DNA from: Cryobacterium sp.
GTDB lineage: Bacteria > Actinomycetota > Actinomycetes > Actinomycetales > Microbacteriaceae
DNA: 64,000 nt
NCBI RefSeq assembly: GCF_025463825.1
Contig: NZ_JAODBG010000059.1
Location: forward strand, 1 to 64,000
Direction: 5' to 3'
Below are positions 370 to 51,528 of the stretch, piece after piece. Numbering within the stretch: position 1 is the first letter of the stretch; every line of letters starts with the position of its first letter. Made by a program: the position numbers and the translations under genes. Under the pieces are notes generated by a model, which saw only the letters and a list, made by a program, of their open reading frames with translations, had not been told where the DNA came from and searched no databases.

Positions 370-2703
370 CTAGCTCGCCGGGCCGAACCAGCCGCTCACG
401 TCGGCGAGCAGGGCGACTCGCCCGCCGCTGTTGCGCAGCCGCACCATGCGGTCGCCCAGCCGGACGACGACCAGGTCCGCCGCGGTCTGCGTCGGTGCCA
501 GGTTGAGGTTGCTCACCCGCGGCGGCTCGTTCGCCGTCGCCGGGTACACGCGCACGTCGGTGCTCGCCGTGGCGGCCACGCCCGTCACGTTCAGCACCGC
601 TGCTGTGGCCAGGCTCGGGACCTGCGCCTTCCCGCCGACGCGCAGCAGGACGCTCTCGGCCGGGCCGACCGTCGTGGCCGCGGTGGGGCTGGTGCCGAGC
701 CGGGTTCGGGTGTCGAGGATGCGTGAGGGGTTCACCGGCCGGAACAGCGAGCCGGAGCTGCTCGCGTCGTACCAGCCGGCCAGGTCGGCCAACAGGTGCA
801 CGCTGCCGGCCTGGTTCCGCAGCCGGACCCTCCCGTCCTGTCCCAGCCGCACGATGACGACGTTCGGGACAGGCGCGCCGGGCCCGGCGTTGATGTTGCT
901 GGCGCGGGGCGGTGCGGTGTCGACGAACGGCGTCGGGTAGGCGCGGACGTCGGTGCTCGTCGTGGGGCTGACGGCCGTCACGGTGAGGGCGACGGCTGAC
1001 GCGCCGAGCGGCACCGGGCTGCTGTCTCCGGTCACGGCGAGGTCGACGAACTCGCCGGGGCCCAGGCGGTCGGTGCGGGTCGTCCCGATCTGGGAGCGGG
1101 TGTCGAGCAGGCGCGTCGGGTCTGCGGGGGTGAAGGTCGAGCTGGCCGCCGGCGCGTAGTAGCCGGCCAGGTCGGCCAGCAGCGAGACCGCGCCGGCGGA
1201 GTTGCGGAGGCGGACCTTCCCGTCGTTGCCGATCGGCACCGTGACGAGGTTCGCGCGGGTGACGCCCTGGAGGAGGTTGAGGTTGGACACCTGGGGCACC
1301 GGCGAGAGCACGACGGGCGTCGGGTAGACGCGGATGTCGGTGGCCGCGGACGGGTCCACGCCCGTGACGTTGAGGACCACAGCGCGCGCGTCGAGAGGGA
1401 CGCCCTCGCGCCCCGCGACCAGCAGGTCCACCACGCCGCCGGCGCCCAGTCGGGCCTGCGGTGCTCCGAGGCCCTCCCGGGTGTCCAGGACGCGCACCGG
1501 GTCGAGCGCGGTGTACGGCGAACCGCGCACGGCCGGCACGGCGTACCCCATGTCCGCGAGCATCCCCATGGCGATCTGGCCGACGTCGCTGAAGGACTCG
1601 CCGTTCTCGATGAACGGGGTCATCAGGCCGTTCGGGTGCTCGTCCGGGTAGCTGGCCTCGTTCAGGTGGCCGTACGACGTGCCCTCGAGGAACTCGCTCG
1701 GCGCGTAGAGGCGGACCTCGTTGCTGCCGACGGCGCTGCGGGCCAGAGTCCCCGCCCAGTAGAGGTGGTTGCCGGTGAGCGCGTTCTTCAGCTCGGTCGA
1801 CCCGTCCGCCATGGACAGCAGGCGCTTGCCGCCGTTGCCGGCCTGCGCGGCTGTCGTGGCGTAGGTGAAGGTGTCGTAGGAGGTGCCGCTGCGGATGCCG
1901 GTCGCGCCGTTGACCTCGCGGTCGCCGATGGTCGCGCGGCCGTTCCCGTCGACCGAGGCCGTCCCCACCATCCCGAGCCCGTGGCCGATCTCGTGCAGCA
2001 CCACCGTGCGGAAGTCGACCTGGTCGGCCGGCGGGTTGCCGTCGAGGCCGAAGTACAGGCCGGTCAGGCTGGGGTTGAACTCGGCCACGATGTCCGGCTC
2101 GCCCGGCAGCGTGTCCACGCCACGGCGGGCGTTGGCCAGGGCGACCGGCTCGAAGACGTCGTCGGTCTGCGTGCTGGTGCCCATGTCGTTGCGGCGGAAG
2201 TCCTGCGGGCCGGCGCCTCCGAGGATCGACGGGTCCGAGAACGTCGTCGCTGTGGCGTCGACCAGGATCGGCTGGGACGACTCGATCGTGCGCTCCCAGA
2301 TGGCGACCGCCGAGTCGAAGGCGTCGCGTGCGGCCTGCGTCCACGTGGCGCCGTTCTGCCGGTAGGTCACCTGGATGTCGGAGACCGGCTGGGCCGTGAG
2401 GTTGCCGCGGGCCACCGGACCCGTCCCCTCCGCCGGTGCGCTGCTCGTGGTGCGCAGCCGGGCCGGCGCCGCCTGCCGGCGGACCACGCCGCTGGGCAGC
2501 GCGCTGTAGCTGCTGTCGCCGGCGGCGATGGCGGCGCGCAGGCTCACCGGCGCCGCGTGCAGCCCGTCCCCAGGAGCGGCGGTGGCGCTGCCGGCAAGGC
2601 CGCCGACGACGAGCGCCACGAGGACGAAGGCCGTCGTGAGGGGGCGGCGGGGAGTGCGGACCGGCACGGGCTGCTCCAGCAGGACGACGAGGGGGACGGC
2701 CAT
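370..2703 (-). CDS. Secreted zinc metalloprotease with three C-terminal VLDTR repeat domains
   Basis: The protein is 777 aa from the ATG at 2703. I chose this start over the track's upstream start because it is followed by a basic stretch and a hydrophobic signal peptide ending near ATAAP (about residues 20-43). A metzincin-like zinc motif HEIGHGLG lies near residue 237, but Gly stands where a third His would be expected three residues further on, so the third ligand must be elsewhere or absent. From about residue 440 to the end there are three copies of a roughly 110-residue module, each opening with DP.R(V/I/L)LDTR and closing with LLADL.G(W/Y), probably a surface or adhesion domain. The substrate is unknown. 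The gene is transcribed away from serA. Confidence 0.8.
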   Translation of the reverse strand: MAVPLVVLLEQPVPVRTPRRPLTTAFVLVALVVGGLAGSATAAPGDGLHAAPVSLRAAIAAGDSSYSALPSGVVRRQAAPARLRTTSSAPAEGTGPVARGNLTAQPVSDIQVTYRQNGATWTQAARDAFDSAVAIWERTIESSQPILVDATATTFSDPSILGGAGPQDFRRNDMGTSTQTDDVFEPVALANARRGVDTLPGEPDIVAEFNPSLTGLYFGLDGNPPADQVDFRTVVLHEIGHGLGMVGTASVDGNGRATIGDREVNGATGIRSGTSYDTFTYATTAAQAGNGGKRLLSMADGSTELKNALTGNHLYWAGTLARSAVGSNEVRLYAPSEFLEGTSYGHLNEASYPDEHPNGLMTPFIENGESFSDVGQIAMGMLADMGYAVPAVRGSPYTALDPVRVLDTREGLGAPQARLGAGGVVDLLVAGREGVPLDARAVVLNVTGVDPSAATDIRVYPTPVVLSPVPQVSNLNLLQGVTRANLVTVPIGNDGKVRLRNSAGAVSLLADLAGYYAPAASSTFTPADPTRLLDTRSQIGTTRTDRLGPGEFVDLAVTGDSSPVPLGASAVALTVTAVSPTTSTDVRAYPTPFVDTAPPRASNINAGPGAPVPNVVIVRLGQDGRVRLRNQAGSVHLLADLAGWYDASSSGSLFRPVNPSRILDTRTRLGTSPTAATTVGPAESVLLRVGGKAQVPSLATAAVLNVTGVAATASTDVRVYPATANEPPRVSNLNLAPTQTAADLVVVRLGDRMVRLRNSGGRVALLADVSGWFGPAS

Positions 2704-2812
2704 CGTGTCATCCCGCGCAGCGAGAAGGAGCGGGCCGAGGCCGCGCCGGTACCCTCGCCGCAGCCTGCCGCCGCGCGGGAGCACGTCCCCGCCGCCCGCC
2801 CGAAGGACCGCT

Positions 2813-4423
2813 GTGACCCGTCCCGCGACCGCCCCCTCCCGGCCCGTCGTCCTCATCGCCGAGGAGCTCGCGCCGTCCGTGCTCGCGGTGCTCGGCGAGG
2901 GCTTCGACGTCCGGCACGTCGACGGCGCCGACCGGGCGGCGCTGCTGCCCGCGCTGGCCGAGGCCGACGCCGTCCTGATCCGCAGCGCGACTCAGGTCGA
3001 CGCCGAGGCGCTCGCCGCCGCTCCCCGGCTGAAGGTCGTGGCGCGGGCCGGCATCGGCCTGGACAACGTTGACGTCCCCGCCGCCACCGCGCGGGGCGTC
3101 ATGGTCGTCAACGCGCCGCAGAGCAACATCGTCAGCGCGGCGGAGCAGGCGGTCGCGCTGCTGCTGGCCTGCGCCCGCAACCTCGCGCCGGCCAACACGG
3201 CGCTCAAGGCGGGGCGTTGGGAGCGCAGCCGCTGGACCGGGGTCGAGGTGGCGGACAAGGTCGTGGGCGTCGTGGGCCTGGGCCGGATCGGCGTGCTGTT
3301 CGCCCAGCGGATGTCGGCGTTCGGCACGCAGCTCATCGCCTACGACCCGTACGTCTCCCCGGCCCGCGCCGCCCAGATCGGCGTGCGGCTGGTCAGCCTG
3401 GAGGACCTGCTGCGCGAGAGCGACTTCATCTCCATCCACCTGCCGAAGACGCCGGAGACGGTGGGGCTCATCGGCGAGAAGGAGCTGGCGCTCTGCAAGC
3501 CGACGGTCCGCATCGTCAACGCGGCGCGCGGCGGGCTGCTCGACGAGACGGCGCTCGCCAAGGCGCTGGAGGCCGGGACCGTGGCAGGCGCCGGGCTGGA
3601 TGTCTTCGCCAACGAGCCGTGCACCGACTCGCCGCTGTTCGGCTTCGACTCCGTCGTGGTCGCACCGCACCTCGGGGCCTCCACGGTGGAGGCGCAGGAC
3701 AAGGCCGGCATCGCCGTCGCCCGCTCCGTGCGCCTGGCGCTGGAGGGTGACTTCGTGCCTGACGCGGTCAACGTCCAGGCCGCCGGAGCGGTCCCGGAGG
3801 AGCTGCGGCCGGCGCTGCCCCTGGTGGAGAAGCTGGGGCGCGTGTTCACCGCGCTGGCAGGGGGTCTTGCCGCGAGCATGGAGGTGGAGGTGCGCGGCGA
3901 AATCGCCTCGCTGGACGTCAGCGTGCTCCAGCTCGCTGCGCTCAAGGGCGTCTTCGCCGACGTGGTGGAGGAGCAGGTCACCTTCGTCAACGCGCCGACG
4001 CTGGCGGCCGAGCGCGGCCTGGAGGTCAGCCTCGCGACCGACCCGGAGAGCCCGGAGTACCGCAACGTCATCCGTGTCCACGGCGTCCTCCCGACGGGGG
4101 AGCTGGTGAGCGTGTCCGGCACCCTCACCGGGCCCCGCCAGGTGGAGAAGCTCGTGGAGGTCGACAGCTTCGACATCGAGCTCGTCGCCGAGAAGCACCT
4201 GCTGTTCTTCCGCTACCACGACCGGCCGGGCGTCGTCGGCGTCGTCGGCGCCGGCCTGGGTGACGCCGGCATCAACATCGCGGGCGCGCAGGTCAGCCGC
4301 ACCGCGCAGGGCGGTGACGCGCTGATGGCGCTCACCGTCGACAGCGCGCCGCCGCACGAGGTCCTCGAGCAGCTCGCCCGCGAGATCGGCGCCCACTCCG
4401 TCCGGTCGGCTGATCTCTCGTGA
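2813..4423 (+). CDS. serA: D-3-phosphoglycerate dehydrogenase
   Basis: SerA oxidises 3-phosphoglycerate to phosphohydroxypyruvate, the first step of serine synthesis. The 536-aa length fits the long actinobacterial type. The substrate domain contains ARAGIGLDNVDV, the NAD-binding motif is VGLGRIG, the catalytic region includes NAARGGLLDE and the acid-base His is in APHLGAST. An intervening allosteric domain and a C-terminal ACT domain (RYHDRPGVVG) suggest feedback by serine. I chose the GTG at 2813, preceded by GAAGGA, because the longer ORF upstream is not protein-like and runs into the divergent protease. A TACCCT box near 2749 could be the -10. Confidence 0.95.
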   Translation: MTRPATAPSRPVVLIAEELAPSVLAVLGEGFDVRHVDGADRAALLPALAEADAVLIRSATQVDAEALAAAPRLKVVARAGIGLDNVDVPAATARGVMVVNAPQSNIVSAAEQAVALLLACARNLAPANTALKAGRWERSRWTGVEVADKVVGVVGLGRIGVLFAQRMSAFGTQLIAYDPYVSPARAAQIGVRLVSLEDLLRESDFISIHLPKTPETVGLIGEKELALCKPTVRIVNAARGGLLDETALAKALEAGTVAGAGLDVFANEPCTDSPLFGFDSVVVAPHLGASTVEAQDKAGIAVARSVRLALEGDFVPDAVNVQAAGAVPEELRPALPLVEKLGRVFTALAGGLAASMEVEVRGEIASLDVSVLQLAALKGVFADVVEEQVTFVNAPTLAAERGLEVSLATDPESPEYRNVIRVHGVLPTGELVSVSGTLTGPRQVEKLVEVDSFDIELVAEKHLLFFRYHDRPGVVGVVGAGLGDAGINIAGAQVSRTAQGGDALMALTVDSAPPHEVLEQLAREIGAHSVRSADLS

Positions 4424-4502
4424 GCGGAGCATGTGTGCGGCTCCCCGCGACGCAGGAGCGGGCGAGCCGCGCGCTTGCGGAGCGAGCACAGCAGGTGTCG
4501 GC

Positions 4503-7173
<2,671 letters not shown>

Positions 7174-7197
7174 TCTGGGACACCCGTCCCAAGAACC

Positions 7198-7203
7198 TAG
7201 GCT
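7198..7203 (+). promoter_or_regulatory. -10 box of leuB (leaderless)
   Basis: TAGGCT ends 7 bases before the leuB ATG at 7211, so transcription would begin at the start codon itself. No Shine-Dalgarno sequence is present in the gap. Confidence 0.55.
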
Positions 7204-7210
7204 GCTGGGC

Positions 7211-8224
7211 ATGACGAAGCTGGCGGTCATCGGGGGCGACGGCATCGGCCCGGAGGTGGTTGAGGTCGGGCTGCAGGTGCTCGACGCCGTGCTGCCCGGG
7301 GTCGAGCGGACCGACTACGACCTCGGCGCCCGCGCCTACGCCCGCACCGGGGAGGCGCTGCCTGCCAGCGTGCTCGAGGAGCTGCGCGGACACGACGCCA
7401 TCCTGCTCGGGGCGATCGGCGACCCGAGCGTGCCGCCCGGCGTGCTGGAGCGCGGCCTGCTGCTGCGCCTGCGCTTCGCGCTGGACCACCACGTCAACCT
7501 GCGCCCGGTGCGGCTGTTCCCCGGCGTCGTCAGCCCGGTCGGCGACCAGCCGGTGGACATGGTGGTCGTGCGCGAGGGCACCGAGGGGCCGTACGTCGGC
7601 AACGGCGGCCGGCTACGCGAGGGCACCCCGCACGAGGTGGCCACCGAGGTCAGCCTCAACACGGCCTACGGCGTGGAGCGGGTCGTGCGCGACGCCTTCA
7701 CCCGCGCCGAGGCGCGCGAGCGCAGGCACGTGACGCTGGTGCACAAGACCAACGTGCTCGTGCACGCCGGCGGCCTCTGGAGGCGCGTCTTCGACCAGGT
7801 GGCTGCCGAGCACCCGGACGTCGCCACCGACTACGCGCACGTGGACGCGGCGTCGATGTACTTCGTGACCGACCCCGGCCGCTTCGACGTCGTCGTCACC
7901 GACAACCTGTTCGGCGACATCCTCACCGACATCGGCGCCGCCATCGCCGGCGGGATCGGCCTGGCCGCCAGCGGCAACATCGACGCGACCCGCACCAACC
8001 CGTCCATGTTCGAGCCGGTGCACGGCAGCGCCCCCGACATCGCCGGCCAGGGCAAGGCCGACCCCACGGCGACGGTGCTGTCGGTGGCCATGCTGCTCGC
8101 GCACCTGGGCGCGACGGCCGCCGCGCAGCGGGTCGAGGCGGCCGTCGCCGCCGACCTGGCCGGTCGCGGCACCGGTCCTCGTACGACCGCCGAGGTGGGG
8201 GAGTCGCTGCTCAGCCGGCTGTAG
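7211..8224 (+). CDS. leuB: 3-isopropylmalate dehydrogenase
   Basis: LeuB oxidatively decarboxylates 3-isopropylmalate with NAD in leucine synthesis. The protein is 337 aa, typical of the short actinobacterial form. The start [16 protein letters not shown] carries the family's N-terminal signature; the substrate Arg/Lys residues and the metal-binding [11 protein letters not shown] motif are present, as is the [23 protein letters not shown]-binding end. I moved the start from 7151 to 7211 because the upstream residues overlap leuA and a leaderless promoter fits 7211. Confidence 0.96.
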
Positions 8225-8303
8225 CGCCGGACCTGCTCGGGATACCTTCAGGGAGCGGCGCGGGCGGTCCCACGTCCCCGCCGGGACGGACGGAGAGCGC
8301 GAC

Positions 8304-9413
8304 ATGACCACCGCAGCCGACACCAAGGGCGGCATCGAGACCGTGCCCAGCACCTCGCGGCGCAGCGACGCCGAGCGCGAGGCCCTCATGGCCGACCCCG
8401 GCTTCGGACGCGTCCACACCGACCACATGGTGGCGATTCGGTGGAGCGTCGAGCAGGGCTGGCACGGCGCGAAACTCACCGCGTACGAGCCGCTGCAGCT
8501 CGACCCCTCCGCGATGGTCCTGCACTACGGGCAGGCGATCTTCGAGGGCCTCAAGGCGTACCGGCAGCCCGACGGCGGCGTGGCCGTGTTCCGGCCGGAG
8601 GAGAACGCCCACCGGTTCAACCGGTCCGCGGCGCGCCTGGCGATGCCCGAGCTGCCGGTCGAGCTGTTCATGGACGCCGTCGACGCGCTCGTCGACGCCG
8701 ACCGCGACTGGGTGCCGACGGCCGAGGGGCAGAGCCTCTACCTGCGCCCGTTCATGATCGCCACCGAGGCGCAGGTCGGCATGCGGCCGGCCCACGAGTA
8801 CCTCTTCCTGCTCATCGCCTTCCCCGTCACGCCGTTCTTCTCCGGCGAGATCAAGCCGGTGACCGTCTGGCTGTCCGACGAGTACGTCCGCGCGGCGCAG
8901 GGCGGCACCGGCGAGGCCAAGTGCGCCGGCAACTACGCCGGCAGCCTGCTCGCGCAGCGTCAGGCCGCCGAGAAGGGCTGCGACCAGGTCGTCTGGCTCG
9001 ACGCGGTGGAGCGGCGCTGGGTCGAGGAGATGGGCGGGATGAACCTGTTCTTCGTCTCCGACGGCGGCACCCGCCTCATGACGCCCGCCCTCACCGGGAC
9101 GCTGCTGCCTGGCGTCGTCCGCGACAGCCTGCTGCAGCTGGCCCCCGAGCTCGGCCTCACCGTCGAGGAGGGGCGCATCTCGGTCGACGACTGGCGCAAG
9201 GGCGCGGAGGACGGCTCGATCAGCGAGGTGTTCGCCTGCGGCACCGCCGCGGTCATCGCGCCGGTCGGCCACGCCAAGAGCAGCTCGGGCGAGTGGACGA
9301 TGGGCGACGGCAGCTCGGGGGAGGTCACCCTTCGGCTGCGCAGCGCGCTGCTCGACCTGCAGTACGGGCGCGCCGCGGACCCGCACGGGTGGATGCGCCG
9401 CGTCGGGTCGTAG
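8304..9413 (+). CDS. ilvE: Branched-chain amino acid aminotransferase
   Basis: IlvE is a PLP-dependent class IV aminotransferase that makes leucine, isoleucine and valine from their keto acids. The 369-aa protein has the actinobacterial length. The PLP Lys is in GEAKCAGNY (near residue 206), and FEGLKAYR, LYLRPFMIA and EVFACGTAAV are family motifs. A TACCTT box near 8242 may be the -10, leaving a leader of about 55 bases with GGAGAG near the start. Confidence 0.96.
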   Translation: MTTAADTKGGIETVPSTSRRSDAEREALMADPGFGRVHTDHMVAIRWSVEQGWHGAKLTAYEPLQLDPSAMVLHYGQAIFEGLKAYRQPDGGVAVFRPEENAHRFNRSAARLAMPELPVELFMDAVDALVDADRDWVPTAEGQSLYLRPFMIATEAQVGMRPAHEYLFLLIAFPVTPFFSGEIKPVTVWLSDEYVRAAQGGTGEAKCAGNYAGSLLAQRQAAEKGCDQVVWLDAVERRWVEEMGGMNLFFVSDGGTRLMTPALTGTLLPGVVRDSLLQLAPELGLTVEEGRISVDDWRKGAEDGSISEVFACGTAAVIAPVGHAKSSSGEWTMGDGSSGEVTLRLRSALLDLQYGRAADPHGWMRRVGS

Positions 9414-9467
9414 CCAGCACGCCTGCCGACGTCGTACGTTCCGGGTCCCCGACCTGCAGGAGCCAAC

Positions 9468-9860
9468 GTGCTGGTGCGCGACGTCATGAGCGAGTCCGTC
9501 CTGACGGTGGGGCCGACCCACACGATCCGCCAGGTGGCGCAGGCCATGCGCAGCCGCCACGTGGGTGCTGCGGTCGTGCACGACCCGGACAGCGAAGGCC
9601 CCGGCATCCTCACCGAGCGCGACGTCCTCGAAGCCGTGGCCGGGGGGCAGGACCTGGACCAGGAGCTGGCCGCCGACCACCTCACTCCCGACGCGGTCGT
9701 CGGCATGCCGGACTGGGACCTGGACAAGGCGGCCGCCGCCATGGTTGCCGGCGGGTTCCGGCACCTGGTGATCTGCGACGGCAGCGAGGTCGTCGGCGTC
9801 ATCTCGGTGCGCGACATCGTGCGCGTCTGGTCGCAGCAGCGCAGCGCTGCGCCTGCCTGA
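9468..9860 (+). CDS. CBS-pair domain protein
   Basis: This 130-aa protein consists almost only of two CBS motifs: VRDVMSESVLTV...GILTERDV, then DHLTPDAVV...GVISVRDIV. Stand-alone CBS pairs bind adenosine nucleotides and act as energy or redox sensors, but the partner is not identifiable here. The GTG at 9468 follows CAGGAGCC; an in-frame GTG two codons later is an alternative. It lies between ilvE and the esterase cassette. Confidence 0.85.
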   Translation: MLVRDVMSESVLTVGPTHTIRQVAQAMRSRHVGAAVVHDPDSEGPGILTERDVLEAVAGGQDLDQELAADHLTPDAVVGMPDWDLDKAAAAMVAGGFRHLVICDGSEVVGVISVRDIVRVWSQQRSAAPA

Positions 9861-9868
9861 CCTGCGGC

Positions 9869-9874
9869 TAGCCT
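9869..9874 (+). promoter_or_regulatory. -10 box of the esterase/ATP-grasp cassette
   Basis: TAGCCT lies 8 bases before the GTG at 9883, giving a leaderless or nearly leaderless start for the three-gene cassette. Confidence 0.5.
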
Positions 9875-9882
9875 CCCCGGGC

Positions 9883-10941
9883 GTGTCCGCCACCGTCGAC
9901 GGCGTCGAGCTCGTCTTCCGTCACCCCGACCCCTCAGGCGCGCTGTCGGGGGTGCGCCTCCAGCAGGACGTGCGGCTGCCCGGCGAAGCGCTGGGCTTCG
10001 TCCGCGAGGGCGACGACTGGGTGCTGCGCGTGCCCCGGCCCGAGGTCGACCGCTTGGAGTACTCCTTCGAGCTCCAGCGCGCGGACGGCGGCAGCGAGTG
10101 GGTCGTCGACGAGGGCAACCCGGTGCGGGTCGGCGGCGCCTTCGGCGACAAGTCTGTGCTGGAGATGCCCGAGTACGAGGCGCCGGCCTGGACCCGCGCC
10201 GACCCGCCGCGCGTGCCGCGCCGCGAGCTCTCGCTGTCCAGCCGCGGCCTGGAGCAGGACGTGCCGTGCGTCCTCTGGTCCGCGGTCGGTGCGGACGAGT
10301 CGGCCGAGCTGCCGCTGCTGGTCGTGCACGACGGGCCGGAGTACGACGCGCTGGCCGGCCTGACGCTCTTCCTGGACGCGATGGTCGAGGCGGACCGCCT
10401 GCCGGCCATGCGCGCGGCGCTGCTCGCGCCGGTCGACCGCAACGAGACCTACAGCGCCTCGCCGGTGTACGGCCGCGCGCTGGCGCTGGGCCTGGTGCCG
10501 GGGCTGCGGAAGGAGGTGCCGACGAGCGTCGTGCTCGGCATGGGCGCCTCGCTCGGCGGGTTGGCCATGCTGCAGGCGCAGCGGACGCACCCCGGCGTGT
10601 TCGCCGGCCTCTACCTGCAGAGCAGCAGCTTCTTCCACCGGGTGCTCGACGAGCAGGAGAGCGGTTTCGAGCGCTTCAACCGCATCACCGGCTTCGTCGA
10701 CAGCGTGCTGCGCGCGGGAGCGGCGACGGACCCCGTGCCGGTCGTCATGTCCTGCGGGCTCATCGAGGAGAACGTCGACAACAACCGCCTGATGACCCGC
10801 GCGCTGCAGGCCCAGGGCTACGACACGCGCCTGGTCGAGAACCGCGACGTGCACACCTACACCGGTTGGCGGGACACCTTCGACCCGAACCTGGTCGACC
10901 TCGTGCAGCGCGTCCTGCAGGGAGACGCGTATGCGGCGTGA
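9883..10941 (+). CDS. Enterochelin-esterase-like alpha/beta hydrolase
   Basis: The protein is 352 aa, cytoplasmic, with no signal peptide. The first 90-100 residues look like a beta-sandwich (early-set) domain of the kind that precedes the catalytic domain in Fes/IroE-type esterases. An alpha/beta hydrolase follows, with the nucleophile elbow GMGASLGG and a likely catalytic His in RDVHTYTGW. It overlaps the next gene by 11 bases and heads a cassette with a second esterase and an ATP-grasp enzyme. No siderophore genes are nearby, so the substrate is unknown and enterochelin itself is unlikely. Confidence 0.75.
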   Translation: MSATVDGVELVFRHPDPSGALSGVRLQQDVRLPGEALGFVREGDDWVLRVPRPEVDRLEYSFELQRADGGSEWVVDEGNPVRVGGAFGDKSVLEMPEYEAPAWTRADPPRVPRRELSLSSRGLEQDVPCVLWSAVGADESAELPLLVVHDGPEYDALAGLTLFLDAMVEADRLPAMRAALLAPVDRNETYSASPVYGRALALGLVPGLRKEVPTSVVLGMGASLGGLAMLQAQRTHPGVFAGLYLQSSSFFHRVLDEQESGFERFNRITGFVDSVLRAGAATDPVPVVMSCGLIEENVDNNRLMTRALQAQGYDTRLVENRDVHTYTGWRDTFDPNLVDLVQRVLQGDAYAA

Positions 10942-11671
10942 CGTCGTCGAGCTGTGCTCGCCCGAGCTCGGCTGGTCGCCGCGCGTCCTCGCCTACGGCT
11001 CGCACGGCCGGCCGGTCCTGGTCTTCCCTTCATCGGAGGGACGCGCCGAGGACTACGAGCAGAACGGGATGGTCGACGCGCTCCGCCCGCTGATCGACGC
11101 CGGGCGCCTGAAGCTCTACTGCCTCGACTCCTTCGACAGCGGCAGCTGGTACCGCGACGACCTCCCGCTGGAGGAGCGTGCGCGGCTGCACGAGGCGTAC
11201 GAGCGCTGGGTGGTCGAGGGCGTCGTGCCCTTCGTCGACGCCGACTGCGGCGGCCGCCAGGAGATGGCCGTCACCGGCTGCAGCTTCGGCGCGTACCACG
11301 CTGCGAACATCGCGCTGCGCCGCGCGGACCTGTTCCCGCTCGCGCTCTGCCTGTCCGGCGTCTACGACCTGTCGGTCCTGGGCTGGGGCGAGCGCGGGAC
11401 GTCGTTCCACCTCAACAACCCGCTCTGGTCGCTCGGTGCAGCGCAGGGCGACCACCTCGACTGGCTGCGCTCCCGGCTGTCCCTGCTGCTCGTCTGCGGG
11501 CAGGGGCAGTGGGAGGACACCACCGGCGCCCTCGACAGCACGAGGGCCTTCGGCCAGGTGTGCTCCGACAAGGGGCTGCGGGTGGAGGTCGACCTCTGGG
11601 GGCACGACGTCCCTCACGACTGGCCGTCCTGGCGCAACCAGATCGCCCACCACCTGCCGCGCTTCGTCTGA
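10931..11671 (+). CDS. Esterase-family (PF00756-like) protein
   Basis: The protein is 246 aa with a nucleophile elbow GCSFGAYHA and a C-terminal His in LWGHDVPHDW, as in the putative esterase / antigen-85-like fold, but without signal peptide or extra domains. Its start overlaps the previous esterase and it ends 15 bases before the ATP-grasp gene, so the three are almost certainly co-transcribed. The tight coupling of two hydrolases with a ligase suggests processing of one metabolite. Confidence 0.75.
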   Translation: MRRDVVELCSPELGWSPRVLAYGSHGRPVLVFPSSEGRAEDYEQNGMVDALRPLIDAGRLKLYCLDSFDSGSWYRDDLPLEERARLHEAYERWVVEGVVPFVDADCGGRQEMAVTGCSFGAYHAANIALRRADLFPLALCLSGVYDLSVLGWGERGTSFHLNNPLWSLGAAQGDHLDWLRSRLSLLLVCGQGQWEDTTGALDSTRAFGQVCSDKGLRVEVDLWGHDVPHDWPSWRNQIAHHLPRFV

Positions 11672-11686
11672 GAGAGGACTCTCCGC

Positions 11687-12931
11687 ATGGCTGACCAGAG
11701 GCACCTGCTGGGCCTGCTGCTGGGCACCGAGGAGGACTGGCCGAGCGCCTTCGAGACCCTGGTACGGCGGCTCGACCCGGCGCTGAGGGTGGGCGGCGAC
11801 ACCCATCGGTACGACGTGGAGCGCATCACCGTCGAGCCGTTCGACCTGCGCCAGCCGTCGCGGTACTCGCTGGTCGTCGACCGCCTCGCCTACTGGTACT
11901 ACGTGCCGCGCGAGTGGCTGAAGAAGGTCGCGCTGCTCGACGACGTCTACCTGCTCAACAACCCCTTCACGTTCCAGTCGATGGAGAAGCACGCCGCCTA
12001 CTGCGCGATGATCCGGCTCGGGCTGAAGGTCCCCGAGACGTGGCTCGTGCCGCACAAGCAGCCGCCGGACAACCCGCGCTTCCCCTACACCGCAGCCAAG
12101 TACAACAAGCCGTTCGACCTGCGCGAGGTCGCGGAGAAGGTCGGCTACCCGCTCTGGATGAAGCCGTACGACGGCGGCGCCTGGGTCGGCGTCTCGCGCA
12201 TCCAGGACGAGGCCGACCTGGTCCGCGCCTACGACGAGAGCGGCCAGCGGCTGATGCACCTGCAAGCCAGCGTCGAGGGCTTTGACGTCTTCGCGCGGTC
12301 GCTCTCGATCGGCGCCGAGACGATGGTCATGAAGTTCTCGCCGGACCGCCCGCAGCACGACCGCTACAGCGTCGAGCACGACTTCCTCGACGCCGCGACG
12401 GGGCAGGAGGTCGTCACGATCGGCAAGGTCGTGAACGCCTTCTTCAAGTGGGAGTTCAACTCCTGCGAGACGCTCGTGCGCGGCGGCCAGGTGCACCCGA
12501 TCGACTACGCGAACGCCTGCCCGGACGTCAGCCTCACCTCACTGCACTACTACTTCCCGTGGGCGATGACGTCGCTGGTGAAGTGGTCGCTGTTCTGCAC
12601 GGCGACCGGGCGCACGCCGCGCGTGGACCTCGACACCCGCCGCTGGTACGAGATCGCCGACTCCGACCGGTCGTACGAGGAGAAGCTCGGCGCGTACCGG
12701 ACGCTTGCGGACGGCTACTTCCAGCAGCAGCAGTACGACGAGTTCGTCAGCACGCAGCTGGGCGACCTGGACGCGGTGGCGCACGACTACTTCGCCAGCC
12801 GGGAGTTCGACGACCTGCTGGTGCAGACCGTGCGTGCGACGTTCCCGGCGCACGAGCACGACCAGTTCGTCGCGCACTACCGCGGACTGCTCGGCGCCTG
12901 GGTCTCGGACGCGGCTGCTGCGGCGACGTAG
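11687..12931 (+). CDS. ATP-grasp ligase of unknown substrate
   Basis: The protein is 414 aa. The central part has an ATP-grasp layout: LLNNPFTFQSMEKHAAY before the ATP-lid region, YPLWMKPYDGG with the nucleotide-binding Lys, and a metal site that may use the Glu of NSCETL and the Asp/Asn of DYANACPD. The family joins a carboxylate to an amine or thiol via an acyl phosphate. It follows the second esterase by 15 bases with a GAGAGGA ribosome site. Neither substrate is known; amide or ester bond formation opposed by the esterases is an inference. Confidence 0.75.
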   Translation: MADQRHLLGLLLGTEEDWPSAFETLVRRLDPALRVGGDTHRYDVERITVEPFDLRQPSRYSLVVDRLAYWYYVPREWLKKVALLDDVYLLNNPFTFQSMEKHAAYCAMIRLGLKVPETWLVPHKQPPDNPRFPYTAAKYNKPFDLREVAEKVGYPLWMKPYDGGAWVGVSRIQDEADLVRAYDESGQRLMHLQASVEGFDVFARSLSIGAETMVMKFSPDRPQHDRYSVEHDFLDAATGQEVVTIGKVVNAFFKWEFNSCETLVRGGQVHPIDYANACPDVSLTSLHYYFPWAMTSLVKWSLFCTATGRTPRVDLDTRRWYEIADSDRSYEEKLGAYRTLADGYFQQQQYDEFVSTQLGDLDAVAHDYFASREFDDLLVQTVRATFPAHEHDQFVAHYRGLLGAWVSDAAAAAT

Positions 12932-12932
12932 G

Positions 12933-12938
12933 TAGCCT
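12933..12938 (+). promoter_or_regulatory. -10 box of the FAA-hydrolase/gltX operon
   Basis: TAGCCT begins two bases after the ATP-grasp stop codon and ends 6 bases before the GTG at 12945, so the operon probably has a leaderless first gene. Confidence 0.5.
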
Positions 12939-12944
12939 CGCCGG

Positions 12945-13732
12945 GTGCGCATCGCCCGCTTCGCCCATGCCGGCGAGATCTCCTACGGGGTTGTCCAGGG
13001 CGACCCCGACGTCCCGGCCGAGCTCGTCCTCGCCCCGCTGCAGGGGCACCCGCTGTTCGACCCGACGCCGACCGGCGAGCTCGTGCCGCTGTCGGCCGTC
13101 CGGCTGCTCGCGCCGACGCAGCCCATCAACGTCGTCTGCATCGGCAAGAACTACGCCGACCACGTCGCGGAGATGAAGGACCTGACCTCGGCGGGCACCT
13201 CCGGTGAGCCGACGGTCTTCCTGAAGCCGGCCACCTCCGTCATCGGCCCTGACGACCCGATCCGGCTGCCGGCGGGAGTGGGCCGGGTGGACCACGAGGG
13301 CGAGCTCGCCGTCGTCATGGGCAAGCCGGCGCGCGACCTGACGCCGGCCGACGCCCTGTCGCACGTCTGGGGCTACACCGCCGCCAACGACGTGACCGCC
13401 CGCGACCAGCAGAAGAACGACGCGCAGTGGACCCGCGGCAAGGGCCACGACACGTTCTGCCCACTGGGCCCGTGGCTGGAGACCGACCTCGACCCGTTCG
13501 ACCTGCGGGTGCGCTGCGAGGTGGACGAGGTGCTGCGCCAGGACGGCCGCACCCGCGACCTGCTCACCGACGTGCCGGCGGTGCTGGCGTTCATCACGTC
13601 GTTCATGACGCTGCTGCCCGGAGACGTCGTGCTGACGGGCACGCCCGCCGGCGTCGGCCCACTCGAGCCCGGCAACGTCGTCCAGGTCTCCATCGAGGGC
13701 ATCGGCACGCTGCGCAACCCGGTGACCTCCCG

Positions 13733-13736
<4 letters not shown>
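12945..13736 (+). CDS. Fumarylacetoacetate hydrolase family protein
   Basis: The protein is 263 aa and has the FAH fold. CIGKNYADHVAEM, the metal-binding DHEGELAVVMG and AANDVTARD are family signatures, and the C-terminal LTGTPAGVGPL closes the active site. Members cleave or isomerise acylpyruvates (for example oxaloacetate decarboxylase or acylpyruvase activity); which applies here cannot be read from the sequence. The gene overlaps gltX by 4 bases (ATGA), an arrangement I recognise from other actinobacteria. Confidence 0.88.
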
Positions 13737-15190
<1,454 letters not shown>

Positions 15191-15229
15191 TCCGTCCTGC
15201 GGCGGTGCCGGCCCGACCACGCCGTCCGC

Positions 15230-15235
15230 TAGACT
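15230..15235 (+). promoter_or_regulatory. -10 box of the tRNA-Gln/tRNA-Glu unit
   Basis: TAGACT lies 39 bases before the mature 5' end of tRNA-Gln, a plausible promoter giving a short 5' leader. No clear -35 is seen. Confidence 0.45.
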
Positions 15236-15274
15236 TCTCGCCGGACCGCAGGGGCGACCCCCCGGCGGCCTCCA

Positions 15275-15346
15275 TGGGGTATGGGGTAATTGGCAGCCCG
15301 ACGGTTTCTGGTTCCGTTAGTCTTGGTTCGAGTCCAGGTACCCCAG
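15275..15346 (+). tRNA. tRNA-Gln (anticodon CUG)
   Basis: The 72-base cloverleaf has the acceptor TGGGGTA paired with TACCCCA and a G discriminator. The anticodon loop TTCTGGT contains CTG, and the T-arm has TTCGAGT. CCA is not encoded. Confidence 0.95.
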
Positions 15347-15382
15347 CGCACGACCGCTCGACAACTTCATCTGCACGCCTAG

Positions 15383-15455
15383 GGCCCCGTCGTCTAGCGG
15401 CCTAGGACGCCGCCCTCTCACGGCGGTAGCGAGGGTTCGAATCCCTTCGGGGCTA
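15383..15455 (+). tRNA. tRNA-Glu (anticodon CUC)
   Basis: The acceptor GGCCCCG pairs with CGGGGCT (one G-U at the end) with A as discriminator. The anticodon stem-loop CCGCCCTCTCACGGCGG contains CTC, and the T-loop TTCGAAT is present. It lies 36 bases after tRNA-Gln and is probably in the same transcript. Confidence 0.93.
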
Positions 15456-15463
15456 CGTAACGT

Positions 15464-15496
15464 GACTGTCCGACCACATCATGTGGTCGGACAGTC
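15464..15496. terminator. Perfect 16-bp inverted repeat after tRNA-Glu
   Basis: GACTGTCCGACCACAT and its exact complement are separated by a single C. The stem lies 9 bases after tRNA-Glu, and the TGA stop codon of the converging HNH gene sits at its centre. It probably terminates both transcripts. Confidence 0.75.
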
Positions 15497-16198
15497 GCCG
15501 TTCGGGAGACCTGTCTCCGGGTCCAGGTCCAGACCCAGGGCGCTCACGGCTTCCACGTCGTAACGGCGCAGCATCGCCCATGCCCAGTCCAGCTCATCCG
15601 CCACGCGTTGCCCCTTCGGCTGCGCTGTCGACCACAGCTCGAGGTTCTCGAGCCGGTTGTCGAGGCGCTCGCCGTTGACGTGATGCACCACTTCGTCCGG
15701 CCTCAGCGGGCGGCCGAGCGAAGCCGCCAACACGAGCCGGTGCTCGAACTCGGCCCGACGCCCGGGCGGCACCAGGTGCCGCTCGTCCGGTCGGACGGCA
15801 CGCCACCAGTAGCCGTGGCTGATCGAGCCGTCGCCTGTGATCGTGCGGAGCGGCCCGCCTGCAGTCGGATCGCCGTGCTTGCGGCGACGCTCGCTGTGCG
15901 ACCGGCACAGGCCAGCGCTGACGGCGCCGCGGGGGCAGCCTTCGACCTGGCAGGTGTCCGCCTTCGGCCGGGTCAACGGCACGTCCGCGCGCACGTCGCC
16001 CGTGCGGCTCCAGCGCAGGTAGTGGCCGTGGCACCAGCCCCGGGTGACCGCTGCACGCCCGCAGCTGCTCACGGCGCAGGTGGTCGGCGCCCGGTCCGGC
16101 TGCACCTGACCGTGTCGCAGCAGCTGCTTGTAGTGCCGCCCGCAGTGCCCGCGCGCGTAGACCTCGCGGTCGCAGTCGAGGGTCTCGCAGATCCGCAT
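15479..16198 (-). CDS. HNH endonuclease with three N-terminal zinc motifs
   Basis: The protein is 239 aa. Three tandem motifs of exactly the same spacing, C-x4-C-x9-C-x2-H, occupy about residues 4-105 (CETLDC.../GHCGRH, CAVSSC.../GWCHGH, CQVEGC.../GLCRSH). An HNH core follows: EHRLVLAASLGRPL, then VVHHVNGERLDNRLENLEL. This resembles phage and free-standing homing-type HNH nucleases, with the fingers giving DNA binding. It lies antisense to and directly downstream of tRNA-Glu. The spread of such genes next to tRNA loci suggests mobility, but no ends or partner genes are visible. Confidence 0.85.
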   Translation of the reverse strand: MRICETLDCDREVYARGHCGRHYKQLLRHGQVQPDRAPTTCAVSSCGRAAVTRGWCHGHYLRWSRTGDVRADVPLTRPKADTCQVEGCPRGAVSAGLCRSHSERRRKHGDPTAGGPLRTITGDGSISHGYWWRAVRPDERHLVPPGRRAEFEHRLVLAASLGRPLRPDEVVHHVNGERLDNRLENLELWSTAQPKGQRVADELDWAWAMLRRYDVEAVSALGLDLDPETGLPNGDCPTT

Positions 16199-16261
16199 GC
16201 GGTCAGGCTGGCTCCAGGGTCCGACAAGCCGACGCGAGCATCCACAGGCGGCAGGTGGCGC

Positions 16262-16486
16262 TCAGCCGGCGACGACGTGCAGGCGGCGCTGCGGGGCGAG
16301 CCCGAGCTCCTCCGGCGTGCCCCAGGACCCCAGCAGGGCGTCCAGGAGCTCCGCCGGCAGGTGCTGCACGGGCGCCGCGGACACGGCCGTGACCACGTCC
16401 TCGTTCCGCACGCGGAGAGCCTCGAGGTCGGCGACGGGTGCCGGGCGGCGGGAGGTGCGGGTGGCGGCGTGCAGCGAGGGGGTCAC
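16262..16486 (-). CDS. Small hypothetical protein
   Basis: This is a 74-aa ORF from GTG at 16486 (VTPSLHAATR), shorter than the 111-aa track entry, whose first part is Pro/Arg/Ser shadow. It has an Ala/Leu-rich, probably helical middle (AELLDALLG) and no recognisable domain. It lies between the HNH gene and the IclR gene on the same strand. Coding status is uncertain; if it is not a gene, 16199-16565 holds nothing else I can identify. Confidence 0.4.
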   Translation of the reverse strand: MTPSLHAATRTSRRPAPVADLEALRVRNEDVVTAVSAAPVQHLPAELLDALLGSWGTPEELGLAPQRRLHVVAG

Positions 16487-16565
16487 GGGTCGACAGTGCC
16501 GCCCAACTGCGGCGGGCGCCATGGCCCGTTGTGACCGTTCTTGGGGTAGTTCGCCCCGGTCCCCG

Positions 16566-17258
16566 CTAGTCGGCGGCGAGCTCGGCGGCCGCGGCAAGGA
16601 CGGCAGGGGCGTGCAGGCGCCCGGGGGAGCGGGTCAGCCGCTCCAGCGGCCCGCTCACGCTCACCGCGGCCACCACGGCTCCGCCGCGGGTGCGGACCGG
16701 CGCCGACACCGAGGCCACGCCGGACTCGCGCTCGGCCACCGAGTGGGCCCAGCCCCGACGCCGGACCTCGGCCAGGGTCCGCGGGGTGAAGGCCGCTGTC
16801 CGCACCAGCGGGTCCTCGGGCGCCCAGGCGAGCAGCACCTGGGCCGCGGAACCGGCCGTCATCGGCAGCGAGCTCCCGACGGGCACGGTGTCCCGCAGGC
16901 CGCTGCCGCGCTCGGCCGCCGCGACGCAGACCCGCTGCTCGCCCTGTCGCCGGTACAGCTGGGCGCTCTCGCCCGTCGTGTCCCGCAGCCGCGGGAGCAC
17001 CCCGGCAGCCCGCTCCAGCAGGTCGTCGCCGACGGGTCCGCCGGCGAGCTCGCCGAGCCGGGGTCCGAGCCGCCAGCGCCCGTGGCGGTCCCGGGCCAGC
17101 AGCCGGTGCACCTCGAGCGCCACGGCCAGCCGGTGCACCGTGGCCCGCGACAGCCCCGTCCGCTCCACCAGGGCGGCCAGCGAGGTGGCGCCGGACTCCA
17201 CCGCCTCCAGCACGAGGACGGACTTGTCCAGGACGCCGACTCCGCTACTCTGTTCCAC
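16566..17258 (-). CDS. IclR-family regulator of leucine genes (NdgR/LtbR type)
   Basis: The protein is 230 aa. An N-terminal winged helix-turn-helix (about residues 8-60, with [22 protein letters not shown]) is followed by an IclR effector domain ([25 protein letters not shown]). Divergence from leuC is the conserved position of NdgR/LtbR, which controls leuCD and other amino acid genes in actinobacteria. The GTG at 17258 lies 6 bases after a TAGTGT box on this strand, so the mRNA may be leaderless and autoregulated through the shared spacer. Confidence 0.9.
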
Positions 17259-17287: not shown

Positions 17288-18748
17288 ATGGCAACGATGG
17301 GTCGCACGCTCGCCGAGAAGGTCTGGGACGCGCACGTCGTCCGTCGCGCCGAGGGCGAGCCGGACCTCGTCTACATCGACCTGCACCTCGTCCACGAGGT
17401 CACCAGCCCGCAGGCCTTCGACGGCCTGCGCCTGGCCGGCCGCACCGTCCGCCGGCCGGACCTCACCCTCGCCACCGAGGACCACAACGTCCCGACGACC
17501 GGGCTCGTCATCGAGGACCCCGTCAGCCGCACGCAGGTGGAGACGCTGCGCAAGAACTGCGCCGAGTTCGGCATCCGCCTGCATTCGCTGGGCGACATCG
17601 AGCAGGGCATCGTCCACGTGGTCGGCCCGCAGTTGGGCCTCACCCAGCCCGGCATCACCGTCGTCTGCGGCGACTCGCACACCTCCACGCACGGAGCCTT
17701 CGGCGCGATGGCGCTGGGCATCGGCACCAGCGAGGTGGAGCACGTCATGGCCACGCAGACCCTGCCGCTGAAGCCATTCAAGACCATGGCCATCACCGTG
17801 AACGGCACCCTGCGCCCCGGCGTCACCGCCAAGGACATCATCCTCGCCGTGATCGCGAAGATCGGCACCGGCGGCGGCCAGGGCTACGTGCTCGAATACC
17901 GTGGCAGCGCCATCCGGGCCCTCTCCATGGAGGGCCGCATGACCATCTGCAACATGTCGATCGAAGCCGGCGCCCGCGCCGGCATGGTCGCCCCCGACGC
18001 AACCACCTACGCGTACCTCGAGGGCCGCGCACACGCGCCACAGGGCGCGGACTGGGACGACGCAGTGGCGTACTGGGACACCCTGGCCACGGACGAAGGC
18101 GCCACCTTCGACGCGGAGGTGATCCTCGACGCCGACGCCCTGGAGCCGTTCGTCACCTGGGGCACCAACCCCGGCCAGGGCGTTTCGTTGAGCGATACCG
18201 TGCCCGACCCCGCCGAGATCGACGACGCCAACGAGCGCAGCGCCGCCGAACGCGCCCTCGAGTACATGGACCTGGCCGCCGGCACCGCAATGAAGGACAT
18301 CCACGTCGACACCGTGTTCCTGGGCTCCTGTACCAACAGCCGGGTTGAAGACCTGCGCGCCGCCGCCGGGATCATCAAGGGCAAGACCATCGCCGATGGT
18401 GTGCGAATGCTCGTGGTGCCCGGGTCCGCCCGTGTGCGCATCGAAGCCGAGGCCGAGGGTCTCGACAAGATCTTCCTGGCCTTCGGCGCCGAATGGCGTT
18501 TCGCCGGTTGCTCCATGTGCCTGGGCATGAACCCCGACCAGCTCGCACCGGGGGAGCGCTGCGCCTCCACCAGCAACCGCAACTTCGAGGGTCGGCAGGG
18601 AAAGGGCGGGCGCACCCACCTGGTGTCGCCGCTGGTGGCCGCGGCCACCGCCATCCGTGGCACCCTGTCCAGCCCCTGGGACCTCGTGCAGGACGGCACC
18701 ATCCCCGCCGACGCCGTGCCGGCCGATCTCATCCCCGTGAAGCTGTAG
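17288..18748 (+). CDS. leuC: 3-isopropylmalate dehydratase large subunit
   Basis: LeuC, with LeuD, isomerises 2- to 3-isopropylmalate using a 4Fe-4S cluster. The 486-aa protein has the cluster Cys in FLGSCTNSR (near 348) and the pair in [10 protein letters not shown] (near 408 and 411). The reading frame is intact, but composition is not uniform: the first ~155 codons use GAG for all 12 or so Glu, while the rest uses GAA for about 7 of 17. The protein also turns Microbacteriaceae-like at [11 protein letters not shown]. The gene therefore looks hybrid. The start is ATG 17288, or possibly ATG 17297 ([10 protein letters not shown]). Confidence 0.93.
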
Positions 18749-50367: not shown

Positions 50368-51528
50368 TCAGGGGGTTGCGGGGAGCAGGCCCTCTCGGAG
50401 CTCGCGGGCAAGGGAGGCCACTACGGCGGGAAGGTCTCCGTCGTTCAAGGCCGCGACAGCCAGCTGTCGCTGATAGCTGGCGCCGTGGTCGAGGATCAGG
50501 TTCAGCTGTCGCAACTCCGGAAGGCAGCCCAGGCGCTCGGCGGTGGGGGAGAGCACCTCGACCAGGCGGCGCACCTCGTCGGTGACCATTCGTTCGGTGC
50601 CGGTGGAGTTCACGATGATCTCGGCCGCCAACCCGTAGCGGGCCGCCCGCCACTTGTTCTCCCGCACGAACCAGGGCTGCATGGTGGGCACCGGGCGCCC
50701 GTTGTCGATCTCGGTCGACATCCACTCGACCAGGCACTGGATGAATGCGGCGATCCCGCCGAGCTCCTCGACGGTGGAGACTCCGTCGCAGGCGCGCACC
50801 TCGATGGTGCCCCAGCGCGGGGAGGGGCGGATGTCCCACCGCACCTCGGTGGCGTCCTCGATGATCCCGGTGACCGTGAGGTCGTTGACGTAGTCTTCCC
50901 ACGCCGACCAGTCCTCGAGCCGCCACGGCAGGCCGGCGGTGGGCAACTGCTGGAACATCTGCGCTCGATTGGAGGCGTATCCGGTGTTGACGCCCGCCCA
51001 GAACGGGCTCGATGCGCTCAACGCCTGCAGGTGCGGCACGAAGCTGAGCAGACCGTTGAGGATCGGGATGACCTTGTCGCGGTCCTCGATGCCCACGTGC
51101 ACGTGGATGCCCCAGATCATCATGTTCCGGCCCCACCACTGGGTGCGGTCGATGAGCTTGTGGTAGCGCTCCTTGTCGGTGACCGTCTGGTCGAACCACT
51201 GGCCGAATGGGTGCGAGCCCGAGCAGATCGGGTCAACACCCCGCGGCTCGGTTATGGCGCGCACCTCGGCGGCCTGGTCGGCGACGTCCGCGACGGCGCC
51301 GGCCACGGTGTGGTGCACTCCGGAGACAAGCTCAACGGTGTTCAACAGGAGCTCCCCGGTGATGTGCGGGTGCGGGGAGCCATCCGGGCCGCGGAGGGCG
51401 TCGAGGACCTCGTCGGCGATCGAGACGAGGTCGCCGGTTTCACGATCGACCAGGGCGAGTTCCCACTCGATGCCGACCGTCGATCGCTCGGAGCGAGCGA
51501 ACTCGATTCCCACGGTTTCGCGTCCCAC
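50368..51528 (-). CDS. YbdK-type glutamate--cysteine ligase family protein
   Basis: The protein is 386 aa from GTG 51528 (403 aa from the upstream track start). Motifs are STVGIEWELALVD at the N-terminus, the region GSHPFGQW, NMMIWGIHVHVGI and MQPWFVRENKWRAARYGL. The family is the GCS2/carboxylate-amine ligase group; some members have weak glutamate-cysteine ligase activity, but actinobacteria use mycothiol rather than glutathione, so the real substrate is open. I chose GTG 51528 because AAGGG precedes it and VGRETVGIEFARSERS reads as a natural start. Confidence 0.87.
   Translation of the reverse strand: MGRETVGIEFARSERSTVGIEWELALVDRETGDLVSIADEVLDALRGPDGSPHPHITGELLLNTVELVSGVHHTVAGAVADVADQAAEVRAITEPRGVDPICSGSHPFGQWFDQTVTDKERYHKLIDRTQWWGRNMMIWGIHVHVGIEDRDKVIPILNGLLSFVPHLQALSASSPFWAGVNTGYASNRAQMFQQLPTAGLPWRLEDWSAWEDYVNDLTVTGIIEDATEVRWDIRPSPRWGTIEVRACDGVSTVEELGGIAAFIQCLVEWMSTEIDNGRPVPTMQPWFVRENKWRAARYGLAAEIIVNSTGTERMVTDEVRRLVEVLSPTAERLGCLPELRQLNLILDHGASYQRQLAVAALNDGDLPAVVASLARELREGLLPATP

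What the first reader, a model, noticed from the sequence alone, without database searches (positions are those of the whole stretch)
9883..12931. Compact esterase / esterase / ATP-grasp cassette
Two different alpha/beta hydrolases and an ATP-grasp ligase are packed with an 11-base overlap and a 15-base gap behind one leaderless promoter. A ligase paired with two hydrolases suggests making and trimming of an amide- or ester-linked metabolite. No transporter, NRPS or siderophore gene is present, so this may be a small uncharacterised pathway.
Basis: partly seen in the sequence, partly recalled or inferred. Interest (0 to 1): 0.6.

Follow-up and report, generated by a model that had tools for sequence, protein, structure and literature searches.

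The report
Conserved ligase-plus-two-hydrolases operon in actinobacteria
Three neighbouring genes, one ligase and two ester-type hydrolases, are kept together as a unit across many distantly related actinobacteria, so they probably make and trim an unknown amide or peptide-like small molecule; no described pathway was found for them.

Summary
EstA (9883-10941), EstB (10931-11671) and ATPg (11687-12931) lie on + with an 11-base overlap and a 15-base gap, behind a TAGCCT box 8 nt before EstA's GTG. In another order the same three genes recur as EstA-ATPg-EstB (18 of 18), and nothing else is conserved there. Across 297 Actinomycetota genomes the three are present or absent together (p about 1e-27, not tree-corrected). 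Where ATPg stands alone, a divergent esterase pair often lies elsewhere, beside three more ATP-grasp ligases found only in ATPg genomes. EstA folds like enterobactin esterase Fes; ATPg is a remote D-Ala-D-Ala ligase/RimK-type ATP-grasp with a C-terminal helical domain and no Pfam family. Best reading: a cytoplasmic carboxylate-amine ligase plus two serine hydrolases making and trimming an amide/peptide-like metabolite; substrate unknown. The window is chimeric: bases 1 to about 17,560 match a Frankiales MAG at about 99.8%, the rest belongs to the host genus, so the cassette belongs to the Frankiales organism.

The parts
9869..9874 (+). TAGCCT, -10-like box of a leaderless promoter, 8 nt before the EstA start
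   Evidence: such a box is found in 30 of 65 EstA orthologues against 0.8% background
9883..10941 (+). EstA, 352 aa, Fes-like serine hydrolase: N-terminal beta domain plus alpha/beta hydrolase; S223, E295 and H324 invariant
10931..11671 (+). EstB, 246 aa, PF00756 alpha/beta hydrolase; S118, E195 and H229 invariant; overlaps EstA by 11 bases
11675..11678 (+). AGGA, Shine-Dalgarno-like motif of ATPg
   Evidence: SD-like in 73 of 87 orthologues
11687..12931 (+). ATPg, 414 aa, ATP-grasp ligase with a C-terminal helical domain (about residues 279-414); K159, E261, D273 and N276 invariant in 47 orthologues

Best explanation
The trio is one operon and one functional module. ATPg is most likely an active ATP-grasp ligase that turns a carboxylate into an acyl phosphate with ATP and joins it to an amine, giving an amide or peptide-like small molecule in the cytoplasm. 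EstA and EstB are two serine hydrolases with Ser-acid-His residues that act on the same molecule, hydrolysing or transferring an acyl group, so that the product is trimmed, matured or turned over. In some lineages three further amino-acid-ligase-like ATP-grasps and an S51-like (cyanophycinase/peptidase-E-type) protein are added, which suggests that the product can be a longer, peptide-like compound. Shown by computation: operon-like structure, conservation, co-occurrence, fold families, conserved catalytic-type residues. Inferred: ligase chemistry, amide product, order of steps, cytoplasmic site (no signal peptide seen by eye). Unknown: both substrates.
For: Co-directional EstA-EstB-ATPg in 52 of 88 loci, median gaps -4 and +14 nt, flanks unrelated between lineages. 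In another order the trio recurs as EstA-ATPg-EstB in 18 of 18 loci, the only genes shared by more than 3 of them. In 297 genomes EstB is in 21 of 24 ATPg genomes and 2 others; EstA in 20 of 24 and no others (Fisher p 6e-27 and 2e-27, not tree-corrected). Tree-distance correlation 0.70-0.77, permutation maximum 0.34. 7 of 13 checked genomes without adjacent EstA carry a divergent EstA elsewhere. ATP-grasp B is in 5 of 297 genomes, all ATPg carriers, chance about 2e-6 (probability worked out by hand, not tree-corrected). Partner proteins are ligases or peptidases: ATP-grasps, GCS2, M20. EstA model pLDDT 95, best PDB match Fes at 8e-21; ATPg matches D-Ala-D-Ala ligase, RimK and ArgX.
Against: No assay; no substrate can be named. 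In the window's own lineage no second amidoligase or peptidase lies beside the trio. The GCS2-type ligase is only weakly associated (11 of 24 carriers against 35 of 273; p 2e-4). Nine Nonomuraea loci keep ATPg with DUF2252 and no esterase nearby; 4 of 4 Nonomuraea genomes checked have no EstA at all. ATPg model confidence is moderate (pLDDT 79) and its PDB matches are partial (TM by query length 0.3-0.4). Ester, thioester or acyl-transfer chemistry is not excluded.
Confidence: 0.5

Rival explanations
1. The module modifies or serves alpha-glucan (glycogen) metabolism: EstA binds a glucan through its N-terminal beta domain and the ligase/hydrolases add or remove an acyl or amino-acyl group.
For: In one lineage ATPg, EstB and glycogen synthase GlgA overlap as one operon beside GlgC, GlgB and a GH57 gene (L152; L160 the same trio plus GlgA and GlgC). 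In family f18 pgm and glgB, in two genomes also a maltokinase-like gene, lie within about 7 kb (L026, L027, L029, L031). EstA also resembles CBM48-CE1 esterases. These glycogen gene names are from motif recognition, not from a family scan.
Against: The glycogen genes are absent from most loci: glgA in 2, glgB in 5, glgC in 4 of 116. Of the 18 further loci of that order only L160 has them. Fes, not a glucan enzyme, is EstA's best match.
Confidence: 0.15
2. The trio releases iron or processes a siderophore: EstA is a Fes-type esterase.
For: EstA's best relatives by sequence and fold are Fes.
Against: No siderophore-type gene was recognised among the recurring neighbours; identity to Fes is 20%; a second esterase and a ligase are not part of Fes systems.
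Confidence: 0.06
3. Graspetide (RiPP) pathway: ATPg cross-links a small precursor peptide and the hydrolases process it.
For: ATPg's model also matches a graspetide ligase (7mgv); some graspetide loci carry alpha/beta hydrolases (PMC8939145).
Against: No room for a precursor gene in the window: gaps 22, -11, 15 and 13 bases; no conserved further gene of 60 aa or more in 18 loci of the second order.
Confidence: 0.05
4. Accidental neighbours held together by local synteny.
For: None beyond the short distances.
Against: Flanks differ, order is permuted, presence is correlated across genomes.
Confidence: 0.01

Closest known systems
Enterobactin (enterochelin) esterase Fes, with PF00756 and CBM48-CE1 feruloyl esterases
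   Same: EstA fold and domain order: N-terminal beta domain plus alpha/beta hydrolase with Ser/acid/His
   Different: 20% identity, no siderophore genes recognised nearby, tied to an ATP-grasp and usually to a second esterase
D-Ala-D-Ala ligase, RimK, LysX/ArgX-type ATP-grasp ligases
   Same: ATP-grasp fold and Lys-containing ATP-binding strand region; acidic/Asn metal-type residues
   Different: Below every Pfam/NCBIfam cut-off; DxxN instead of ExN (my reading); extra C-terminal helical domain of about 135 residues
Predicted amidoligase gene networks (ATP-grasp, GCS2, peptidases; Iyer et al. 2009, from memory, paper not held)
   Same: Ligases of several folds beside peptidases/hydrolases in extended clusters
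   Different: The core here is one ATP-grasp plus two PF00756 hydrolases; whether Iyer et al. list this family could not be checked
Graspetide clusters (PMC8939145)
   Same: ATP-grasp with alpha/beta hydrolase in some loci
   Different: No precursor peptide gene found

Membership tests
PF00756 / Fes-type serine hydrolase (EstA, EstB) | alpha/beta hydrolase fold with Ser-acid-His | tested here: met
   EstA S223, E295, H324 and EstB S118, E195, H229 invariant; EstA fold match Fes 8e-21. Triad assignment is by motif position. EstB fold by profile only
Enterobactin esterase (Fes) proper | siderophore gene context and full-family score | tested here: not met
   no recurring siderophore genes recognised; NCBIfam Fes score 52.6 against cut-off 222
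ATP-grasp superfamily (ATPg) | ATP-grasp fold | tested here: met
   129 PDB matches at E<=0.001, top hits ATP-grasp ligases; model pLDDT 79
ATP-grasp superfamily (ATPg) | conserved ATP Lys and metal residues | tested here: inconclusive
   K159, E261, D273, N276 invariant in 47 sequences; equivalence to Ddl residues is inferred from spacing
ATP-grasp superfamily (ATPg) | ATP-dependent carboxylate ligation | not testable with these tools
   needs enzyme assay
Graspetide clusters | adjacent precursor peptide gene | tested here: not met
   gaps of 22, -11, 15 and 13 bases leave no room beside or within the trio
Multi-ligase amidoligase clusters | further ligase and peptidase genes beside the core | tested here: inconclusive
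   met in extended clusters such as L053, L149-L152, L155, L156; not met in the window's lineage

The most novel reading that the evidence does not exclude
A previously unrecognised pathway, tied to glycogen metabolism in some lineages, in which a new ATP-grasp ligase family and a Fes-like glucan-binding hydrolase attach and remove an amino-acid or peptide group on an alpha-glucan or a companion storage polymer.
Probability: 0.1. Interest if true: 0.8.

Novelty: new variant of a known kind. Interest (0 to 1): 0.5.

Why it matters
A three-gene module, with its ligase in about 8% of sampled Actinomycetota (24 of 297 genomes), no named family for that ligase and no described pathway found, is a compact target: three probably soluble enzymes, carriers in cultured genera (Asanoa, Actinophytocola, Virgisporangium, Solirubrobacter), and extended versions that hint at the product. 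Solving it would name a new ligase family and probably a new cytoplasmic metabolite.

Tried and rejected
Chance synteny: refuted. Graspetide: no space for a precursor. Siderophore esterase: no context. Phage or plasmid carriage: no ATPg match in phages, plasmids or viral contigs. Anti-phage defence: no PADLOC match. GCS2-type ligase as an obligate partner: only weak association. Glycogen link: real in two lineages but not general, kept as a rival. An empty-site comparison in the same genus failed because the window's first 17.5 kb does not come from that genus. Literature searches gave no paper on this trio; most subscription papers are not held.

Full report
Observation. The three genes are exactly where described: EstA 9883-10941 (352 aa, GTG), EstB 10931-11671 (246 aa, ATG), ATPg 11687-12931 (414 aa, ATG), all +, with an 11-base overlap and a 15-base gap. 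A coding-potential model trained on these genes and their relatives picks all three (partly circular). TAGCCT lies 8 nt before the EstA start. Across orthologues, 30 of 65 EstA genes have a TANNNT box 4-10 nt before the start, against 1 of 61 EstB, 0 of 87 ATPg and 0.8% of random start-like codons; ATPg has an SD-like motif in 73 of 87. This is the pattern of a leaderless first gene, a coupled second and an SD-led third. The FAA-hydrolase gene downstream has its own TAGCCT box.

Conservation. A search of 149 genomes of the host's order gave eight orthologues of ATPg at 59-62% identity; a collection of 84,980 species genomes gave 425 stretches encoding relatives, of which the best 80 were read. 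In 88 loci the order EstA-EstB-ATPg, same strand and consecutive, occurs 52 times; EstA-ATPg 6, EstB-ATPg 3, esterases elsewhere in the locus 7, none in the locus 20. Median gaps are -4 and +14 nt. Flanking genes are shared only among close relatives. The CBS, ilvE, leuB and FAA-hydrolase neighbours of the window recur only in Frankiales relatives, apart from a 40% FAA-hydrolase match in L027.

In the order around genome G322, 21 of 138 genomes carry ATPg. In the 18 further regions read, the trio stands as EstA-ATPg-EstB in all (EstA 0.6-2 kb off in two), and no other gene is shared by more than three of them. A changed order with the same membership is strong evidence for a functional unit.

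Co-occurrence. In 297 Actinomycetota genomes ATPg is in 24, EstB in 23 (21 shared), EstA in 20 (all shared). Two of the ATPg-only cases, G160 and G302, are matches cut off on contigs of fragmented assemblies. These p-values (about 1e-27) ignore phylogeny, but the carriers fall in ten families. Pairwise distances of the three proteins over 48 loci correlate at 0.70-0.77, permutation maximum 0.34; shared species history accounts for part of this.

Extended versions. Of 13 genomes whose ATPg has no EstA in the locus, 7 carry a divergent EstA elsewhere (31-33% identical to the window's); four Nonomuraea and two others do not (L053 and L098 in that call have EstA in the locus and are not counted). 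In the genomes where its surroundings were read, the divergent pair lies in a second cluster with three more ATP-grasp ligases, an unnamed protein with an AWSAGAM motif like the S51/peptidase-E nucleophile (my reading, no Pfam hit), and in G017 an M20 dipeptidase-like protein. One of these ligases occurs in 5 of 297 genomes, all of them ATPg carriers. Two more genomes have a short ATPg-like gene beside a circularly-permuted-ATP-grasp-like gene (below Pfam cut-off) and a GCS2 carboxylate-amine ligase, with EstB adjacent (L155) or EstB and EstA next to it in convergent orientation (L156). In two small genomes an EstB-like protein is paired with an ATP-grasp of the other type (L153, L154). So esterase plus ATP-grasp is a recurring pairing, and the other recurring partners are ligases and peptidases.

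Enzymes. EstA: AlphaFold model pLDDT 95; closest solved structures Fes, then CBM48-CE1 feruloyl esterases. EstB: PF00756, profile relatives CE1 esterases and antigen-85-type acyltransferases. The Ser, acid and His expected of a triad are invariant in both. ATPg: 74% mean column identity in 47 sequences, model pLDDT 79, matches D-Ala-D-Ala ligase, RimK and ArgX, with a confident helical C-terminal domain that these seem to lack (the lack is my reading of target lengths). K159, E261, D273 and N276 are invariant and sit where ATP and metal residues are expected; that mapping is inferred.

Mechanism. The best reading is ATP-driven amide formation by ATPg and hydrolysis or transfer by EstA and EstB on the same molecule. 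The family names and partner genes point to amide/peptide chemistry; they do not give the substrate.

Glycogen rival. In L152 ATPg, EstB and GlgA overlap (4 and 1 nt) as an operon between GlgC and GlgB-GH57; L160 has EstA-ATPg-EstB-GlgA with GlgC convergent. In f18 genomes pgm and glgB lie nearby. This is intriguing but restricted: glgA occurs in 2 of 116 loci, glgB in 5.

Chimera. Window bases 1687 to 17,000 match a Frankiales MAG contig (JAOPWK010000218.1, L034) with 30 mismatches; the match runs on to about 17,560, where identity falls to about 75% (first mismatches 17,562-17,584), inside leuC. From leuC onward most genes match same-genus genome G125, mostly at 60-95% in collinear order, whereas gltX before it is only 42% identical to G125. 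The simplest explanation is a misjoined contig; a very recent recombination is not excluded. The trio is therefore to be credited to the Frankiales organism. It is present in the seven Frankiales loci L034-L040, so the finding itself is not an artefact.

Verdict. A real, widely conserved, apparently uncharacterised enzyme module; ordinary in its parts, unusual in its constancy.

Noticed in passing
window 17562-17584: Chimeric junction inside leuC: upstream about 99.8% identical to Frankiales MAG RYN_172 (L034), downstream belongs to the host genus (G125). Probable misassembly; affects every finding that spans it.
   Followed up: yes
L152:2748-16748 and L160:3886-9559: ATPg-EstB(-EstA) in one operon with glycogen synthase glgA, beside glgC and, in L152, glgB and GH57.
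   Followed up: partly
L053:14785-20653, L149:7693-13132, L150:4447-10977, L151:4395-11037: Second cluster: L-amino-acid-ligase-like ATP-grasps (up to three), an S51-like protein and a divergent EstA, mostly with EstB; the ligase tested was found only in ATPg genomes in the sample.
   Followed up: partly
L155:6501-10594 and L156:6845-12126: Short ATPg-like protein, circularly-permuted-ATP-grasp-like protein and GCS2 carboxylate-amine ligase in a row; EstB directly upstream in L155, EstB/EstA pair convergent in L156.
   Followed up: partly
L153:7573-10296, L154:7657-10293: EstB-like protein with a C-terminal extension of about 240 residues without Pfam match, paired at no gap with an ATP-grasp.
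   Followed up: no
L077, L081, L085, L092, L093, L096, L105, L107, L112: Nonomuraea: ATPg directly behind a DUF2252 gene, no esterases nearby; some with a small extra ATP-grasp downstream.
   Followed up: partly
L063: Contig labelled Spirochaetaceae MAG carries an actinobacterial-type trio; probably a contaminant contig.
   Followed up: no
L053:11314-12795 (and 22 other loci): A 493-aa GCS2-like ligase, often convergent downstream of ATPg; common in actinobacteria without ATPg too.
   Followed up: partly
window 50368-51513: A GCS2 glutamate-cysteine-ligase-type gene in the host-genus part of the contig, unrelated in position to the trio.
   Followed up: no
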